Origin: Candidatus Poribacteria bacterium
GTDB lineage: Bacteria > Poribacteria > WGA-4E > PCPOR2b
Assembly (NCBI GenBank): GCA_022822005.1
Contig: JAJECO010000077.1
Coordinates: forward strand, 1-64,000
Reading direction: 5' to 3'
DNA length: 64,000 nucleotides
Positions within the stretch are counted from its first letter, which is position 1; every line of letters starts with the position of its first letter. A program made the position numbers and the translations under genes. Below, piece after piece: positions 56,347 to 63,501 of this stretch. The notes below the pieces were generated by a model. It saw only the letters and a program-made list of their open reading frames with translations. It made no database searches and was not told where the DNA came from.

Positions 56347-56913
56347 CTACCGAGATTTGGTACGTTCTTTTTGCGACTCCCAAAGTGGCTCCGACTCGTC
56401 TGAACGATGATTGACCACACGGGCAAGTACAAACAGCAGATCAGAGAGTCTGTTGAGGTAAATAACTACCTCTGGATTCACCGTTTCCTTCGCAGCCAGA
56501 CTGACAACACGTCGCTCAGCGCGGCGCGCTACGGTTCGAGCTAAGTGGAGGGCTGCACCATCAACCGAGCCACCGGGTAGGATGAATGCTTTTAGGGGTG
56601 GGAGTTGGGTATCCAAGCGGTCAATCTCGCTTTCCAATTTGGCAGTCAGGGTGGGCGGAATCCTTAAGTTTGCTGCTTTTGGGTGTGTATCCAATGTCGC
56701 GATATCCGCCCCAAGGTCAAACAGAGCGTTCTGAATTCCATGGAGAATCGCACTTATTTCCGCATCTCGAATCTGAGATCTCACAGACCCGATGCATGCG
56801 TTGAGCTCATCAATTGTTCCGCAAGCCTCCACGCGTATAGTGTCTTTAGCAACCCTTGTTCCACCGTAGAGTCCGGTCTCACCGGTGTCTCCAGTTCTGG
56901 TATAGATTTTCAT
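56347..56913 (-). CDS. PduO-type cob(I)alamin adenosyltransferase
   Basis: A 188-residue enzyme that transfers adenosyl from ATP to cob(I)alamin to make adenosylcobalamin. The N-terminal ATP-binding motif TRTGDTGETGLYGGTRVAK and the TIDELNACIGSVRSQI block are canonical, as is RRAERRVVSLA with the conserved Arg and the closing LNRLSDLLFVLARVVNH. It belongs to the PduO/MMAB type, not CobA. The C-terminal tail is slightly long. Upstream on the other strand is pepP. A B12-type radical SAM gene lies 1.6 kb away. Confidence 0.93.
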   Translation of the reverse strand: MKIYTRTGDTGETGLYGGTRVAKDTIRVEACGTIDELNACIGSVRSQIRDAEISAILHGIQNALFDLGADIATLDTHPKAANLRIPPTLTAKLESEIDRLDTQLPPLKAFILPGGSVDGAALHLARTVARRAERRVVSLAAKETVNPEVVIYLNRLSDLLFVLARVVNHRSDESEPLWESQKERTKSR

Positions 56914-57093
56914 ATTGTAGCCATGATCCCTTCTTCGGTCATTATAGCAGAATTGACGGAAACCTGCAACGCAAATTGGCTTATTAGTTCGTCAGTTGAT
57001 TGGTTCGAGCGGAAAACGAAGGAATGAGAAAACGAAACTGGATTATCCTTCTGGCTTTACGCTCTCTTTTTCATTCGGCTGTTTAGGGGATTA

Positions 57094-57102
57094 TGCTATA
57101 AT
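57094..57102 (+). promoter_or_regulatory. Extended -10 promoter before pepP
   Basis: TGCTATAAT at 57094-57102 is an extended -10 element with a perfect -10 hexamer, about 46 nt before the pepP start codon. No convincing -35 is seen, which is allowed for extended -10 promoters. Confidence 0.45.
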
Positions 57103-57148
57103 TTTGAGCAATTCGAATCAGAATTGTCCACAGAAGGAGAAAACAAAT

Positions 57149-58438
57149 ATGCATGAAGATAGGCGCGAAGCGTTTAAGAAAAAAATCGCAGGAGGTACTG
57201 CAATCCTGCCGAGTGCAGTACAGGCGATGCGTACCCATTCGACCGAATATAGATACCGCCAAGACGCAAATTTTTACTATTTAACGGGGTTCGACGAGCC
57301 AGAGGCGGTTTGCGTCATTGCGCCAGATCATCCTGAACATCAGTATATTTTATTTGTCCGTTCCCGCGTCCCGGAACAGGAGGTTTGGACTGGGAAGCGC
57401 GCCGGTGTTGAAGGTGCAAAGGAACGCTTCGGCGCAGATGCAGCCTATCCGATCGAAGAGTTCGATGAGAAGATCCCGGAATATATCGGCACTTCCGAAC
57501 GGCTCTACTACGGGTTCGGTATGAACGAGGCTTTTAATCAGAAGATTATCGCACTTCTCAAGGAATCCAGGCGAAACCGTTTACGCAATGGAACGGGCCC
57601 AACGACCTTAATTGATCCAACGGACATTCTTGCCGAAATGCGGCTGATGAAAGATGAAAAAGAACTTAAATGGATTCGCAAAGCGGTGGACATCAGTGTC
57701 GAAGCGCATATCGCAGCGATGCAGATGGCTCGTCCCGGGATGTATGAGTATGAGTTGGAAAGCCTAATAGACTCGATCTATCGGAAAAATGGCGGCACGG
57801 GGCCGGCGTTTCTCACCATTGTAGCGAGCAGTGTAAACGCTACGACGCTGCACTATACAACAAATGACCGTCAGATCGAGGATGGTGATCTGGTGCTCAT
57901 TGATGCAGGTTGTGAATATCAGTACTATTGTGGTGATATAACGCGGACATTTCCCGCAAACGGGGAGTTTACCGATGCCCAACGTGCAGTCTACCAAGGT
58001 GTGCTTGACGTCCAATGTGAGGTTATTGAGAGTATTCGCCCCGGCGTGTCAATCGGCGACCCTGTTCAAAAGGCGGTTGAGATGTTGACGGAAACAATGC
58101 TCGAATTGGGCTTGTTAGTAGGAGAGAAGGAGAAATTGATTGAGGAAGGGGAATATCGAAAGTTCTATATGCACAGTGTGGGGCACATGCTGGGGGTAGA
58201 AGTTCACGATGTAGCAAAGACAAGGGACGGTGAGGAGTACAAACTCTTTCAACCGGGCATGGTGATGACCATCGAGCCGGGCCTCTATATTGATCCTGAT
58301 AGCGAAAACGTCCCACCGGAATATCTGGGAATCGGCGTCCGAATCGAGGACAACATTCTGGTAACTGAATCCGGATGTGAAGTTCTGACAGCAGCCGTTC
58401 CCAAAACAATCGATGAGATTGAGAGGTTCATGGCGTAA
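57149..58438 (+). CDS. pepP: Xaa-Pro aminopeptidase (M24 family)
   Basis: A 429-residue M24B metallopeptidase that removes N-terminal residues before proline. The N-terminal domain (residues about 1-165) is the creatinase-N fold (YRQDANFYYLTGFDEPEAV). The catalytic domain has the dinuclear metal ligands in LIDAGCEYQYYCGDITRTF, the HSVGHMLGVEVHD segment, TIEPGLYI and GIGVRIEDNI. AAGGAGA precedes the ATG at 57149. It is convergent with the radical SAM gene; with readthrough of the TGA their stops are only six bp apart. Confidence 0.93.
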   Translation: MHEDRREAFKKKIAGGTAILPSAVQAMRTHSTEYRYRQDANFYYLTGFDEPEAVCVIAPDHPEHQYILFVRSRVPEQEVWTGKRAGVEGAKERFGADAAYPIEEFDEKIPEYIGTSERLYYGFGMNEAFNQKIIALLKESRRNRLRNGTGPTTLIDPTDILAEMRLMKDEKELKWIRKAVDISVEAHIAAMQMARPGMYEYELESLIDSIYRKNGGTGPAFLTIVASSVNATTLHYTTNDRQIEDGDLVLIDAGCEYQYYCGDITRTFPANGEFTDAQRAVYQGVLDVQCEVIESIRPGVSIGDPVQKAVEMLTETMLELGLLVGEKEKLIEEGEYRKFYMHSVGHMLGVEVHDVAKTRDGEEYKLFQPGMVMTIEPGLYIDPDSENVPPEYLGIGVRIEDNILVTESGCEVLTAAVPKTIDEIERFMA

Positions 58439-58444
58439 ACTGCA

Positions 58445-59950
58445 TTAGTGAAGCGGGTCCAACTGACCCTGCGTTGGCTCCGCTCAGCAAAACCAATCTT
58501 CAGTCAGCCGCGGTGGTCGTGTGCGATTAGGTTCGAAATCCATCGGAAGTGTGACAACAGATCCCTCTTCGCCGATTGCCGCATACGCAAGGTTTCGCAC
58601 TCGATGAAAGGTTATGAACGGATCCTCGCTTACCTGTGATGCACTCTCAACGGCGATTGTGACTGCCTTTTGCAGCTCGTCCATGCGCGGGTCGGGATGT
58701 CTCCATTGATGAGTGAAAGACTCCTGATCGAGTCCACCAAGGTAAGGTTGAATAGATTCTTGACAGAGCAAAGAGGACCCTGGCGGCACAAGCAGACGAA
58801 TTGTATATTGCACGGGATCGATGTAATCGATTAGTTGCTTATCCTCCACAGAGTTAAGAATATACAGATAGCTTTCAAGGGTTTCCCATGGTGTGAACGG
58901 GACAAGGGAGGGACGCAGGGCAATCCCGACCTCTTTCAACAGATCAGCTGCCGCAAAAACGTCTGCACGTGTGTGTCCCTTCTGTAAGTTTTTAAGCACT
59001 GTGTCATTGAGCGACTCCACCGCGGAGACGATAAAGATACAGCCACAGTCGCAGAGTTCATGCAGAATAGAACGGTGTTTTAGGAGATGTTCAATCTTGG
59101 TTGTGCAATCGAAGGTTAGGTTTGGAAACGCTTCGTGCATAGCTTGAACAACCCTGAGGGCATGTTTGGGGCCATTCAGGAAGTCAGGGTCACCAAATGT
59201 GATGTGAGTCGCACCAGCGTCAACTTGCGCCCGAATATCTTCCAGCACAGCTTCTTTTCGGACAACCGAAAATCTACCCTCATAAACCGGTGGGATAGGA
59301 CAATGGAAACAGAGATGTTTGCATCCACGGCTCGCCTCTACATACCCCGCGAGGTGAGCGATTCCCTCCCGTTCAAGATGTGCATACTTATCAAGTGGCG
59401 GTAATCCCGTCCGGCTCGGCACGGGAAGAACTTCGTTGTGCAAATCGCTGTGCCGCTGATGAAGGCTTACTTCGGCGTATGAAAGTCGCAGGAGAGGGTT
59501 GGATTGAGGACGGTCTTGCAGTGACACGAGACTTCCGCGTTGGAGTACACCCGTTATCTCAATATGCTTTCCGGCTCCGAGGGAATCAACCAAGTGAACC
59601 ATCGGTATCTCATACTCGCCTCCGATGACTGAATCCGCATGATTTTCAAGCAGATATTCGGCGTTCAACAAAGCGTAGAGGCCGTAGAAGCAGATGTGGC
59701 AGATCGGGTTGATCTCGCGGATACGGGTTGCAACATGTACACCCAGACGGAGAGCCGTGTGCATCGGTACACAAATTCCAACAAACTCTGCACAGGCAGC
59801 CTTTTCCAAATCTAAGGTTTCAACAGCGACATCGATTGCGTCTGGCGTATACCCAGCACGTTCAAGAAATCCAAGCGGCGAAGCGAGACCGATCGGCTGA
59901 TGCCCGAGTTCGTAGCAGGAAATAAGCAATATAGCCCCTGGATGTTTCAT
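58445..59950 (-). CDS. B12-type radical SAM protein with CUAEP tail; predicted selenoprotein (in-frame TGA = Sec)
   Basis: The apparent stop TGA at 58484-58486 is followed in the same frame by GCG GAG CCA, coding Ala-Glu-Pro, so the end reads LTEDWFC-[TGA]-AEP and then nine more residues to TAA at 58445-58447. This is the C-U-A-E-P tail of the family named in public databases CUAEP/CCAEP-tail radical SAM protein, in which the second tail residue is selenocysteine or Cys. Read this way the protein has 501 residues with Sec489. The N-terminal domain (about 1-120) is a B12-binding-like Rossmann fold (ILLISCYELGHQP), without a visible DxHxxG. The radical SAM domain has the 4Fe-4S motif C210-x3-C214-x2-C217 in RGCKHLCFHC. 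The ATG at 59950 starts the conserved part; an upstream in-frame ATG at 59992 lies inside a terminator. Reaction unknown. selA, selB, selC and selD are not in the window. If TGA were a stop, the product would lack the tail. Confidence 0.85.
58453..58472 (-). promoter_or_regulatory. Candidate bacterial SECIS hairpin after the TGA
   Basis: Read as RNA on the minus strand, GCAGGGUC (58472-58465), loop AGUUG (58464-58460) and GACCCGC (58459-58453) form a stem of five plus two base pairs with one bulged A. The loop begins 19 nt after the TGA and has G at its second position. A stem-loop with a G in the first two loop bases, roughly 16-37 nt after the codon, is the known bacterial SECIS layout, as I recall it. 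An alternative fold using AGCGG/CCGCU and CCAAC/GUUGG competes with it. Confidence 0.6.
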
Positions 59951-59966
59951 TGTCAATATAGCCCCT

Positions 59967-60000
59967 GAAAAAAAAGAGGCAGATCCACGCATCTGCCTCT
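59967..60000 (-). terminator. Intrinsic terminator just upstream of the radical SAM gene
   Basis: Perfect 10-bp stem AGAGGCAGAT/ATCTGCCTCT with a 6-nt loop, followed on the minus strand by eight T. It should end transcription of the gene at 60068-60808. The U-tract ends about 17 nt before the ATG of the radical SAM gene at 59950, leaving no room for a promoter after it. Confidence 0.85.
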
Positions 60001-60067: not shown

Positions 60068-60808
60068 TTACTCTGGAATATGATGGTTGGTGGGTGGTGT
60101 TTCTGGTGTGAAAGTAGATCGAGGGATGTATGTTTGAATTGGCAGGGAGTCCTGCCATCCAGCTTCCTCAAGAAGCGTCTGGGCATGGTCAGCACCTCCT
60201 ACCAATTCTATCCAATCTTCGAGCAGCATTAAAGTTGTGCCATCTCGATCTATAATCATCGTCGCGATCAGTGGATATGACTTTGGGGGCGGATCTGGCG
60301 AATCGGGATCCACATCGCGGGGTGGAAAATGGCGATGAATATCGGGAGGAGCTTCGGGAATTGGGGGATTGCTTATGTATACTCCTTCTTGACCACCAAC
60401 TACACCTAGTTCTGGGAGTGCCTGTTCCTTCAACGCTCGAGCCCCGTGCCTGCTGTGATTAGGCATCTCAACTGCCTCAAACACAACGACGTCCACCTGT
60501 TGAAAAATAACCTTAATAGGACTGAAACGGTTGCTATCCCATTTCGCCGGCGTATACACCCATGCCGGAAGCTTCAGGGACGGAAATCGCTTTTCGATCT
60601 CTCTTGGCTGCTGGCTAACAAGTTCTGCTTGCCGCAAAAACGCCCGATCGGTCGCCGTAATTGCACTATTAGGATCAAACTGAGCCTGCTTTGCTATCGA
60701 TGTCGATAGCGCAGTTTCAACATGGGTAACGTAGAACCTATAACCCACATAGCCACTGAGAAGCACGGTCATAGCAATAAGGCACAAGTTGAGACAACGC
60801 TTGTTCAC
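60068..60808 (-). CDS. Membrane-anchored protein of unknown function
   Basis: A 246-residue protein starting with GTG; GGAGG lies 6 nt upstream. An N-terminal hydrophobic segment (residues about 7-27) is an anchor or uncleaved signal. The rest is extracytoplasmic, with a Pro-rich middle (residues about 150-180, PPIPEAPPDIHRHFPPRD) and a final part containing a TMIIDRDGTTLMLLEDW strand-helix unit. No family is recognised. It is followed by a strong terminator. On the same strand, 108 bp downstream of nfuA. Confidence 0.68.
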   Translation of the reverse strand: MNKRCLNLCLIAMTVLLSGYVGYRFYVTHVETALSTSIAKQAQFDPNSAITATDRAFLRQAELVSQQPREIEKRFPSLKLPAWVYTPAKWDSNRFSPIKVIFQQVDVVVFEAVEMPNHSRHGARALKEQALPELGVVGGQEGVYISNPPIPEAPPDIHRHFPPRDVDPDSPDPPPKSYPLIATMIIDRDGTTLMLLEDWIELVGGADHAQTLLEEAGWQDSLPIQTYIPRSTFTPETPPTNHHIPE

Positions 60809-60916: not shown

Positions 60917-61549
60917 TTACCCCTTGCTTGGCTGGTAGTAGGGGTTATCCCCGGCTGCATGATCGGTGGTATCGATAATATTCTTGATTTCAGGAAAATG
61001 CTCTTGAATCATTCCCTCTATGCCGTGCTTCAAGGTGACATTTGCCATGCCACATCCCTGACAGCCACCACCCATGTGAATGTAGATAGAATCATCAGTA
61101 ACATCTAACAGATCAATCTGCCCACCATGCGATGCAACCGCAGGATTAATCCGTTCGTCAATGAGTTGCTGAATGGCTTGGGCTTTAGGATTATCCCAAG
61201 TAGGCGTGTTCGGATTATCAATCTTGAAGCCGCTTGAATTCAGATCTTCTACATAATCAACGGTTGCCCCCTTTAGGTTTTCGGCGCTTTCCGAGTCGAT
61301 GAAAACCTTGAATTCACCGCAGTCGATCACGATATCATCTGGATTTGGGTCAACTTCCAGACCTAATCCATACTCAAATGCTGAGGCAGAGCGTCCGCTG
61401 ATACTAATCCGCAATCCATCAACCTCCATCCCTTGGTCTTCAATCACCGATTGAATCTTTTGCTTGGCACCCTCAGTGACAGTCAGCAGCCCAGACGCCT
61501 CTACAGTTTGAGGTTGTTTCGGTTTTAATTTGTCCAATAGATTCTTCAT
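60917..61549 (-). CDS. nfuA: NfuA-type Fe-S scaffold/carrier protein
   Basis: A 210-residue two-domain Fe-S carrier. The N-terminal part (about 20-115) is an A-type (IscA-like) fold whose cluster cysteines are replaced (RISISGRSASAFEYGLGLEV), as in E. coli NfuA. The C-terminal NifU domain (about 120-200) keeps the cluster CxxC in GGGCQGCGMANVTLKHG. It delivers 4Fe-4S clusters to enzymes, including radical SAM proteins. TTAAGGAGAGG precedes the ATG. It is 25 bp downstream of the sigma factor gene on the same strand. Confidence 0.9.
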   Translation of the reverse strand: MKNLLDKLKPKQPQTVEASGLLTVTEGAKQKIQSVIEDQGMEVDGLRISISGRSASAFEYGLGLEVDPNPDDIVIDCGEFKVFIDSESAENLKGATVDYVEDLNSSGFKIDNPNTPTWDNPKAQAIQQLIDERINPAVASHGGQIDLLDVTDDSIYIHMGGGCQGCGMANVTLKHGIEGMIQEHFPEIKNIIDTTDHAAGDNPYYQPSKG

Positions 61550-62715: not shown

Positions 62716-62838
62716 CTCTATGGTATTATACAGGGGAAGGCCATCATCTGGTATTTCGGTCTGATCAAGGAATTGTGGAGAAATAGGGATGCGGGGAAGT
62801 TAAAGCGTATTCACTACCAAAGCCGGGAAGATAAAACG

Positions 62839-63501
62839 ATGAAATCAGTACCAAAGGACACGCGCGGCGCGATCGTCGAACTCTTGAAAAAAAATAACGG
62901 TATGACAGCTGGTGAAATTGCTGCAGAGTTGGATCTCCACTCAATGACAGTTCGTCAACATCTTGCGATCTTAGAGCGGGAGGGGCACATTCAACACTAT
63001 CGCGAAAAAATTAGCCGGGGCAGACCTGTTTATATCTATAAACTTACCCCTGAAGCCAAAGAAAGTCTATTTCCGAATGACTACCCACGATTCGCACTGG
63101 GGACTTTGGATGCTCTGGTAATGATTGACGGTGCTGAAAAAGTCAATCAACTCCTTGAATATCAGATGGAAGCGAAGATTGAGACGTGCCTCGACACTAT
63201 CGAGGGGAAAAGATTAGACGAAAAGATCAAAGTACTTGCTGCGTTCTTGGATGAAGAAGGCTATCAGGTTGAGATCACAGAGACACCCAATGCCTACATT
63301 CTTAAGGAACACAATTGTGCGCTTGAATCTATCGCACAGAAATATCCCCAACTGTGTCAGCTGGAGTTATCACTGTTACAGCGGCTACTCGACGTACCGG
63401 TCGAGCGAGAATGTCACATGCCTTCTGGGGATTCGATATGTAGTTATAAAGTCCTCAAAACTGGCACGGCTCCAGAATGTAGGGGACAGGATAGCCTGTA
63501 A
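62839..63501 (+). CDS. SufR-like iron-sulfur-cluster-responsive transcriptional regulator
   Basis: A 220-residue DeoR/ArsR-type winged-helix regulator. The N-terminal helix-turn-helix is GMTAGEIAAELDLHSMTVRQ (about residues 21-40), with REGHIQHYREKISRGRPVYIY as the wing. The C-terminal part has cysteines in LKEHNCALES, YPQLCQLELS, ERECHMPSG and DSICSYKV. The first pair is spaced C-x12-C as in SufR, but the later cysteines are shifted, so a cluster is likely but not certain. SufR represses Fe-S assembly genes; nfuA lies next door. The ATG at 62839 is preferred over a start 22 codons upstream because it precedes the HTH. Confidence 0.8.
   Translation: MKSVPKDTRGAIVELLKKNNGMTAGEIAAELDLHSMTVRQHLAILEREGHIQHYREKISRGRPVYIYKLTPEAKESLFPNDYPRFALGTLDALVMIDGAEKVNQLLEYQMEAKIETCLDTIEGKRLDEKIKVLAAFLDEEGYQVEITETPNAYILKEHNCALESIAQKYPQLCQLELSLLQRLLDVPVERECHMPSGDSICSYKVLKTGTAPECRGQDSL

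What the first reader, a model, noticed from the sequence alone, without database searches (positions are those of the whole stretch)
58445..59950. Radical SAM protein with a selenocysteine hidden at its apparent stop codon
Seen: after Cys488 the frame has TGA, then GCG GAG CCA (Ala-Glu-Pro) and a further nine codons to a TAA, ending 6 bp from the convergent pepP stop. The reading LTEDWFC-U-AEP recreates the CUAEP tail of a known radical SAM family. The chance of three codons after a stop giving AEP in register is very low. Known: the family is named CUAEP/CCAEP-tail radical SAM protein; no function has been established to my knowledge. Inferred: the TGA is Sec and the Cys-Sec pair forms a redox- or metal-active tail near the 4Fe-4S/B12 centre.
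Basis: partly seen in the sequence, partly recalled or inferred. Interest (0 to 1): 0.87.

Follow-up and report, generated by a model that had tools for sequence, protein, structure and literature searches.

The report
Selenocysteine-tailed radical SAM enzyme

Summary
On the minus strand, 59950..58445, a radical SAM frame reaches TGA after Cys488 and continues AEPTQGQLDPLH-TAA, 6 bp from the convergent pepP stop.

Independent evidence is very strong. All 48 intact Poribacteria homologues over the cut-off carry one in-frame TGA. In Chloroflexota, TGA and Cys codons alternate at this position (at least 7 supported switches). AEP follows in 94 of 94 distinct tails. A hairpin after TGA covaries; its second loop base is G in 66 of 66 TGA tails, and it decays in Cys forms. 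The genome has selA, selB, tRNA-Sec and selD; selD is itself a Sec gene with the same AGUU loop.

Function is open. The closest characterised relative is ArsL (arsinothricin synthesis). The Cys-Sec pair aligns with the CC of ArsL's RCCLKC tail in a global alignment, and both families sit near ATP-grasp ligases, but arsenic genes are nearly absent around CUAEP genes. I favour an ArsL-like enzyme of a small biosynthetic pathway with the Cys-Sec dyad at its active site (about 0.3).

The parts
58445..59950 (-). Complete selenoprotein CDS, 501 aa read through one TGA, ATG at 59950-59948, TAA at 58447-58445
   Evidence: translation; NF040546 676.5 bits, residues 7-498; homologues align from this ATG
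58484..58486 (-). In-frame TGA, Sec489
   Evidence: TGA in all 48 Poribacteria homologues over the cut-off; TGA or Cys codon in Chloroflexota
58445..58483 (-). Tail after Sec: AEPTQGQLDPLH and TAA
   Evidence: AEP invariant in 94 of 94 distinct tails, synonymous codon variation only
58455..58469 (-). Candidate bacterial SECIS hairpin GGGUC-AGUUG-GACCC; loop base 2 is G
   Evidence: covariation score 0.440 against 0.213 in shuffles, 0 of 500 as high; loop G 66 of 66 TGA forms
59300..59323 (-). CX3CX2C motif (Cys210, 214, 217) for the SAM-binding 4Fe-4S cluster
   Evidence: invariant in the family alignment
58913..59338 (-). Radical SAM domain, residues 205-346
   Evidence: PF04055, 50.8 bits, cut-off 29.5
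59591..59926 (-). N-terminal B12-binding-type domain, residues 9-120 (cobalamin use not shown)
   Evidence: PF02310 hit below cut-off; fold similar both to B12-using enzymes and to AprD4
60917..61549 (-). Context: NfuA-like Fe-S carrier (A-type plus NifU domains), a recurrent neighbour of the family
   Evidence: PF01106 and PF01521; NfuA-like near CUAEP in 12 of 51 groups
56996..58438 (+). Context: convergent Xaa-Pro aminopeptidase (pepP), ends 6 bp from the TAA

Best explanation
The gene encodes a selenoprotein of NCBIfam family NF040546 in a Candidatus Poribacteria genome. UGA489 is decoded as selenocysteine by the organism's SelA/SelB/SelC/SelD system, directed by a hairpin 15-30 nt after the UGA (sequence evidence, strongly supported). 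The protein has an N-terminal B12-type fold, a radical SAM core and a C-terminal tail with a Cys488-Sec489 dyad. Most likely chemistry (inferred, about 0.3): the tail folds to the radical SAM active site, as I presume the vicinal CC of the sister enzyme ArsL does; the thiol/selenol pair binds a soft substrate atom, or is cycled as a redox pair, during a SAM-derived radical reaction. In many lineages the product would feed a short biosynthetic pathway with an ATP-grasp amino-acid ligase and a formyltransferase-like enzyme. The substrate is unknown. The confidence given here is for identity and Sec decoding, not for the chemistry.
For: Family: 676.5 bits to NF040546, cut-off 500, through residue 498. 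Sec: one TGA in all 48 Poribacteria genes over the cut-off; TGA/Cys alternation with at least 7 forced switches; AEP invariant. SECIS: covariation 0.440 against 0.213, 0 of 500 shuffles as high; hairpin in 59 of 66 TGA and 6 of 28 Cys tails. Machinery: selA, selB, tRNA-Sec side by side on contig 78, selD on contig 66 with its own TGA and an AGUU-loop hairpin. Chemistry: invariant Cys 210/214/217 and 488/489 across CUAEP and ArsL rows; ArsL proposed to move the aminocarboxypropyl group of SAM to As(III) (PMC8552651); ATP-grasp neighbours in 20 of 51 CUAEP groups and in two ArsL loci.
Against: No protein data. Three Poribacteria drafts with the TGA gene show neither selA nor tRNA-Sec; they are 73, 81 and 96% complete. 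The 42-nt fold of the window's own tail prefers another hairpin. The independent-pairs test of hairpin against Sec is not significant. The match of the Cys-Sec tail to ArsL's CC comes from a global alignment; the local profile alignment stops before the tail. Arsenic genes are nearly absent around CUAEP genes.
Confidence: 0.93

Rival explanations
1. TGA is an ordinary stop. The protein ends at Cys488 and AEP downstream is chance or a fossil of an older Cys or Sec form.
For: TGA does end other frames in the window; no peptide data; three TGA-gene drafts lack detectable selA and tRNA-Sec.
Against: AEP in 66 of 66 distinct TGA tails with synonymous changes only; covarying hairpin; complete Sec machinery in this genome.
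Confidence: 0.03
2. It is a working ArsL orthologue: it joins the aminocarboxypropyl group of SAM to arsenite for an arsenic compound, with Cys-Sec binding As(III).
For: ArsL is the nearest characterised family: 311 bits to its model and a 405-column profile alignment at 36% identity. Vicinal Cys pair in both tails. ATP-grasp neighbours in both.
Against: Below the ArsL cut-off of 450 and no RCCLKC tail. No arsR, arsQ, arsC or arsH homologue in 83 CUAEP loci, one arsM-like hit, and an ArsB-like permease in only 3 of 51 groups.
Confidence: 0.12
3. It is a cobalamin-dependent radical SAM methyltransferase of a natural-product or cofactor pathway; the Sec tail only protects or reduces the centre.
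For: Cobalamin enzymes TsrM, OxsB, TokK and CysS are among the structural matches. A cobalamin adenosyltransferase gene lies at 56347-56913.
Against: B12-binding Pfam hit below its cut-off. The best structural match is AprD4, which to my knowledge does not use cobalamin. The nearest sequence family, ArsL, is not described as cobalamin-dependent in the paper I read.
Confidence: 0.25
4. It is an iron-sulfur or sulfur/selenium-transfer enzyme (MiaB- or lipoyl-synthase-like) that uses the Cys-Sec pair as a chalcogen relay and needs Fe-S resupply from its NfuA-like and YggX-like neighbours.
For: NfuA-like genes near it in 12 and YggX-like in 16 of 51 groups. MiaB is among the structural matches.
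Against: Only one set of three cluster cysteines is conserved; no second cluster motif. Fe-S carriers could serve any radical SAM enzyme.
Confidence: 0.12

Closest known systems
NCBIfam NF040546, CUAEP/CCAEP-tail radical SAM (seleno)protein
   Same: Everything measured: score over the cut-off, full-length match, CUAEP tail
   Different: Nothing that sets it apart; it is an ordinary Sec-form member with a 9-residue extension after UAEP
ArsL, arsinothricin biosynthesis radical SAM enzyme (NF040542; PMC8552651)
   Same: Sister family; shared CX3CX2C, WxHPDPRxD region and a Cys pair near the C-terminus; ATP-grasp gene nearby in some loci
   Different: Score 311 below the cut-off of 450; tail CUAEP, not RCCLKC; about 50 more residues before the tail; no arsenic operon
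AprD4, radical SAM diol dehydratase (PDB 6fd2)
   Same: Closest solved structure: TM-score 0.67/0.73
   Different: 17% identity in the structural alignment; different known chemistry; I know of no Cys-Sec tail there
Other radical SAM selenoproteins (TIGR04167 rSAM_SeCys; TrsS NF045646)
   Same: Radical SAM enzymes with predicted Sec (PMC13188914)
   Different: Neither is among the 13 NCBIfam matches of this protein

Membership tests
NF040546 CUAEP/CCAEP-tail radical SAM (seleno)protein | Score over curated cut-off (500 bits) | tested here: met
   676.5 bits, residues 7-498
NF040546 CUAEP/CCAEP-tail radical SAM (seleno)protein | C-terminal CUAEP or CCAEP | tested here: met
   FC-U-AEP after reading TGA; same column U or C in relatives
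NF040546 CUAEP/CCAEP-tail radical SAM (seleno)protein | CX3CX2C radical SAM motif | tested here: met
   Cys210, 214, 217 invariant; PF04055 over cut-off
Bacterial selenoprotein | Sec machinery in the genome (selA, selB, selC, selD) | tested here: met
Bacterial selenoprotein | SECIS hairpin just after UGA with a conserved loop G | tested here: met
   covariation, loop G 66 of 66; no Rfam family reached threshold in the window
Bacterial selenoprotein | Sec present in the protein | not testable with these tools
   needs mass spectrometry or 75Se labelling
ArsL (NF040542) | Score over curated cut-off (450 bits) | tested here: not met
   311.1 bits
ArsL (NF040542) | RCCLKC tail | tested here: not met
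   tail is FCUAEP...
ArsL (NF040542) | arsM/arsQ neighbours | tested here: not met
   no arsQ homologue and one arsM-like hit in 83 CUAEP loci
ArsL (NF040542) | aminocarboxypropyl transfer to As(III) | not testable with these tools
   needs enzyme assay
Cobalamin-dependent (class B) radical SAM enzymes | B12-binding domain that uses cobalamin | tested here: inconclusive
   PF02310 25.4 bits, cut-off 32.1; fold matches both B12 users and AprD4

The most novel reading that the evidence does not exclude
The CUAEP family is a selenocysteine-using relative of ArsL that forms a bond between carbon and a thiophilic element other than, or besides, arsenic. The Cys-Sec dyad would hold that element beside the 4Fe-4S cluster, and an ATP-grasp ligase would build the amino-acid-like product into a small compound.
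Probability: 0.22. Interest if true: 0.82.

Novelty: new member of a known kind. Interest (0 to 1): 0.42.

Why it matters
The family is common in Poribacteria (48 of 85 genomes over the cut-off) and Chloroflexota (93 of 400), yet a 2026 review table of prokaryotic selenoproteins names other radical SAM selenoproteins and does not hold NF040546. The Thermomicrobium roseum CDS in the public table ends at the TGA. A radical SAM enzyme whose Cys-Sec pair aligns with the Cys pair of an arsenic-carbon bond-forming enzyme, with natural Cys versions for comparison, makes it directly testable what selenium adds in radical SAM chemistry. The gene neighbourhoods give first leads on a pathway.

Tried and rejected
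(1) Rfam scan of the window: nothing reached threshold, so the SECIS rests on comparative evidence. (2) Single-sequence folding: weak in 111-nt context (z -1.34), and the 42-nt fold prefers another hairpin; not used as evidence. (3) selA linkage as a functional clue: selA is in 93 of 99 Chloroflexota with the family and 229 of 301 without (Fisher p 3e-5), but the background is high and completeness was not controlled; not relied on. (4) Arsenic pathway: tested, largely negative. (5) Independent-pairs test of hairpin against Sec: right direction, not significant. (7) Deltaproteobacterial homologue L030 shows an apparent internal TGA, and its CCAEP tail lies in another frame; I take this as draft-assembly frameshifts and left it out. 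(8) Literature: no paper in the library contains CUAEP or CCAEP; the two Haft selenoprotein papers were not held, so I could not check whether they discuss this family.

Full report
What is in the sequence. The gene lies on the minus strand. Reading TGA as U gives 501 residues ending LTEDWFC-U-AEPTQGQLDPLH, with TAA at 58447-58445. The pepP-like frame on the plus strand ends at 58438, so the gap is 6 bp. TGA is not generally reassigned: it ends 10 of the 48 longest non-overlapping frames of the window, and none of the other nine is followed by AEP.

Family. NCBIfam NF040546, 'CUAEP/CCAEP-tail radical SAM (seleno)protein', matches at 676.5 bits (cut-off 500) through residue 498, past the TGA. 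The second family is ArsL, NF040542, at 311 bits, under its cut-off of 450. Pfam gives Radical_SAM and a sub-threshold B12-binding hit. The family and its Sec option were therefore already in a public catalogue. In the library I could search, no paper contains CUAEP or CCAEP, and a 2026 review of prokaryotic selenoproteins lists other radical SAM selenoproteins but not NF040546 (PMC13188914).

Is TGA Sec? Comparative evidence. The close homologues come from Candidatus Poribacteria genomes. Across 85 genomes of the phylum, 48 have a homologue over the cut-off, and each of these carries exactly one in-frame TGA; in every locus I read it lies in FC-U-AEP. In Chloroflexota, 93 of 400 genomes have the gene over the cut-off, some with TGA and some with TGC/TGT at that codon. 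In 66 distinct TGA tails and 28 distinct Cys tails the next three residues are always AEP, with only synonymous codon changes. A tree of 50 CUAEP proteins with three ArsL proteins needs 9 Sec/Cys changes, at least 7 of them forced by well-supported branches.

SECIS. Counting from the T of TGA, positions 18-22 pair with 28-32 around a five-base loop (23-27). The second loop base is G in 66 of 66 TGA forms and in 18 of 28 Cys forms. On 51 TGA tails, for the stem 17-22/28-33, the covariation score is 0.440 against 0.213 for shuffles (0 of 500 as high), and slid registers give at most 0.193; pairs 20-30 and 21-29 change on both sides in 17 and 29 sequences. A hairpin test (at least 4 of 5 pairs plus the loop G) is met by 59 of 66 TGA and 6 of 28 Cys tails (Fisher p 2e-10, not corrected for kinship). 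The stricter independent-pairs test runs the same way, about 5 to 1, without reaching significance. In the window the stem is GGGUC-AGUUG-GACCC at 58469-58455; it forms in the fold of the wider region though not in a 42-nt fold.

Sec machinery. The window's genome (97.8% complete) carries tRNA-Sec, selB and selA side by side on contig 78, all over curated cut-offs, and ARAGORN independently calls tRNA-SeC with anticodon tca. selD is on contig 66. selD itself has an in-frame TGA (CG-U-AAK) followed by a hairpin CAGUCC-AGUU-GGACUG with the same AGUU loop, a useful internal control for what the local SelB probably recognises. Across the phylum 73 of 85 genomes have tRNA-Sec and 72 of 85 have selA. 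Three drafts with the TGA gene show neither (73, 81 and 96% complete); I cannot exclude a real loss in the last.

What it might do. The three cluster cysteines and the pair at 488/489 are invariant in an alignment of 44 CUAEP and 3 ArsL proteins; ArsL ends RCCLKC. Profile comparison aligns the two families over 405 columns at 36% identity but, being local, stops before the tail, so the match of the two tails is an inference from the global alignment. ArsL has been proposed to move the 3-amino-3-carboxypropyl group of SAM to As(III) (PMC8552651). The AlphaFold model, made with Cys in place of Sec, is confident (mean pLDDT 91.6; 88 for residues 481-490), but I had no coordinates to measure the distance from the tail to the cluster. 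Its nearest solved structure is AprD4, followed by TsrM and OxsB.

Neighbourhoods. In 83 loci forming 51 groups, recurrent neighbours are a formyltransferase-like protein (24 groups), an ATP-grasp protein with an L-amino-acid-ligase C-terminal domain (20), a YggX-like iron-trafficking protein (16), an NfuA-like iron-sulfur carrier (12, including 60917-61549 here), and DUF169 and an aminotransferase (6 each). ATP-grasp proteins also lie near ArsL in Alicyclobacillus and Priestia and are homologous to the CUAEP ones (26% identity). Arsenic genes are nearly absent around CUAEP genes. I therefore favour an ArsL-like enzyme in a small-molecule pathway with the Cys-Sec dyad at the active site (about 0.3), ahead of a plain B12 methyltransferase (0.25), an arsenic-specific ArsL orthologue (0.12) and a chalcogen-transfer enzyme (0.12).

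Verdict. Observation confirmed; the Sec interpretation is supported to the limit of sequence evidence. It is a new member of a known, functionally unassigned family. What this work adds is the covariation, the switch count, the machinery check with the selD control, the ArsL tail comparison and the neighbourhoods.

Noticed in passing
window 59975-60000 (-): Perfect 10-bp terminator-like hairpin followed by a T run, ending about 25 nt before the ATG of the finding. It may close the upstream gene or act as a leader attenuator; I saw no clear counterpart in one pairwise alignment with relative L163.
   Followed up: partly
window 59925-59970: The string CAGGGGCTATATTG occurs twice, on either side of the start codon of the finding (seen).
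   Followed up: no
L180:1528 (own genome, contig 66): selD of this genome is itself a selenoprotein gene, with an AGUU-loop hairpin like the one in the finding.
   Followed up: yes
L092:11953-13389 (Thermomicrobium roseum plasmid): The public CDS of the same family, WP_012643191.1, ends exactly at the TGA, so the Sec tail is missing from the record used here.
   Followed up: partly
window 60068-60808 (-): 246-aa protein without a Pfam or NCBIfam match, between the NfuA-like gene and the finding.
   Followed up: no
window 62773-63501 (+): Regulator resembling SufR (below that family's cut-off), near a sigma-70 factor gene and the NfuA-like gene.
   Followed up: no
L104, L105, L106 (Cys forms, Chloroflexota): Cys-form tails such as GGCCAGTTCGGCT keep parts of the hairpin and the loop G, as if a SECIS were decaying after a Sec-to-Cys change.
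   Followed up: partly
L097, L103, L104, L105, L106, about 3-4 kb upstream of the CUAEP gene: ArsB-like permease in 3 of 51 groups, nearly the only arsenic-type gene seen near the family.
   Followed up: no
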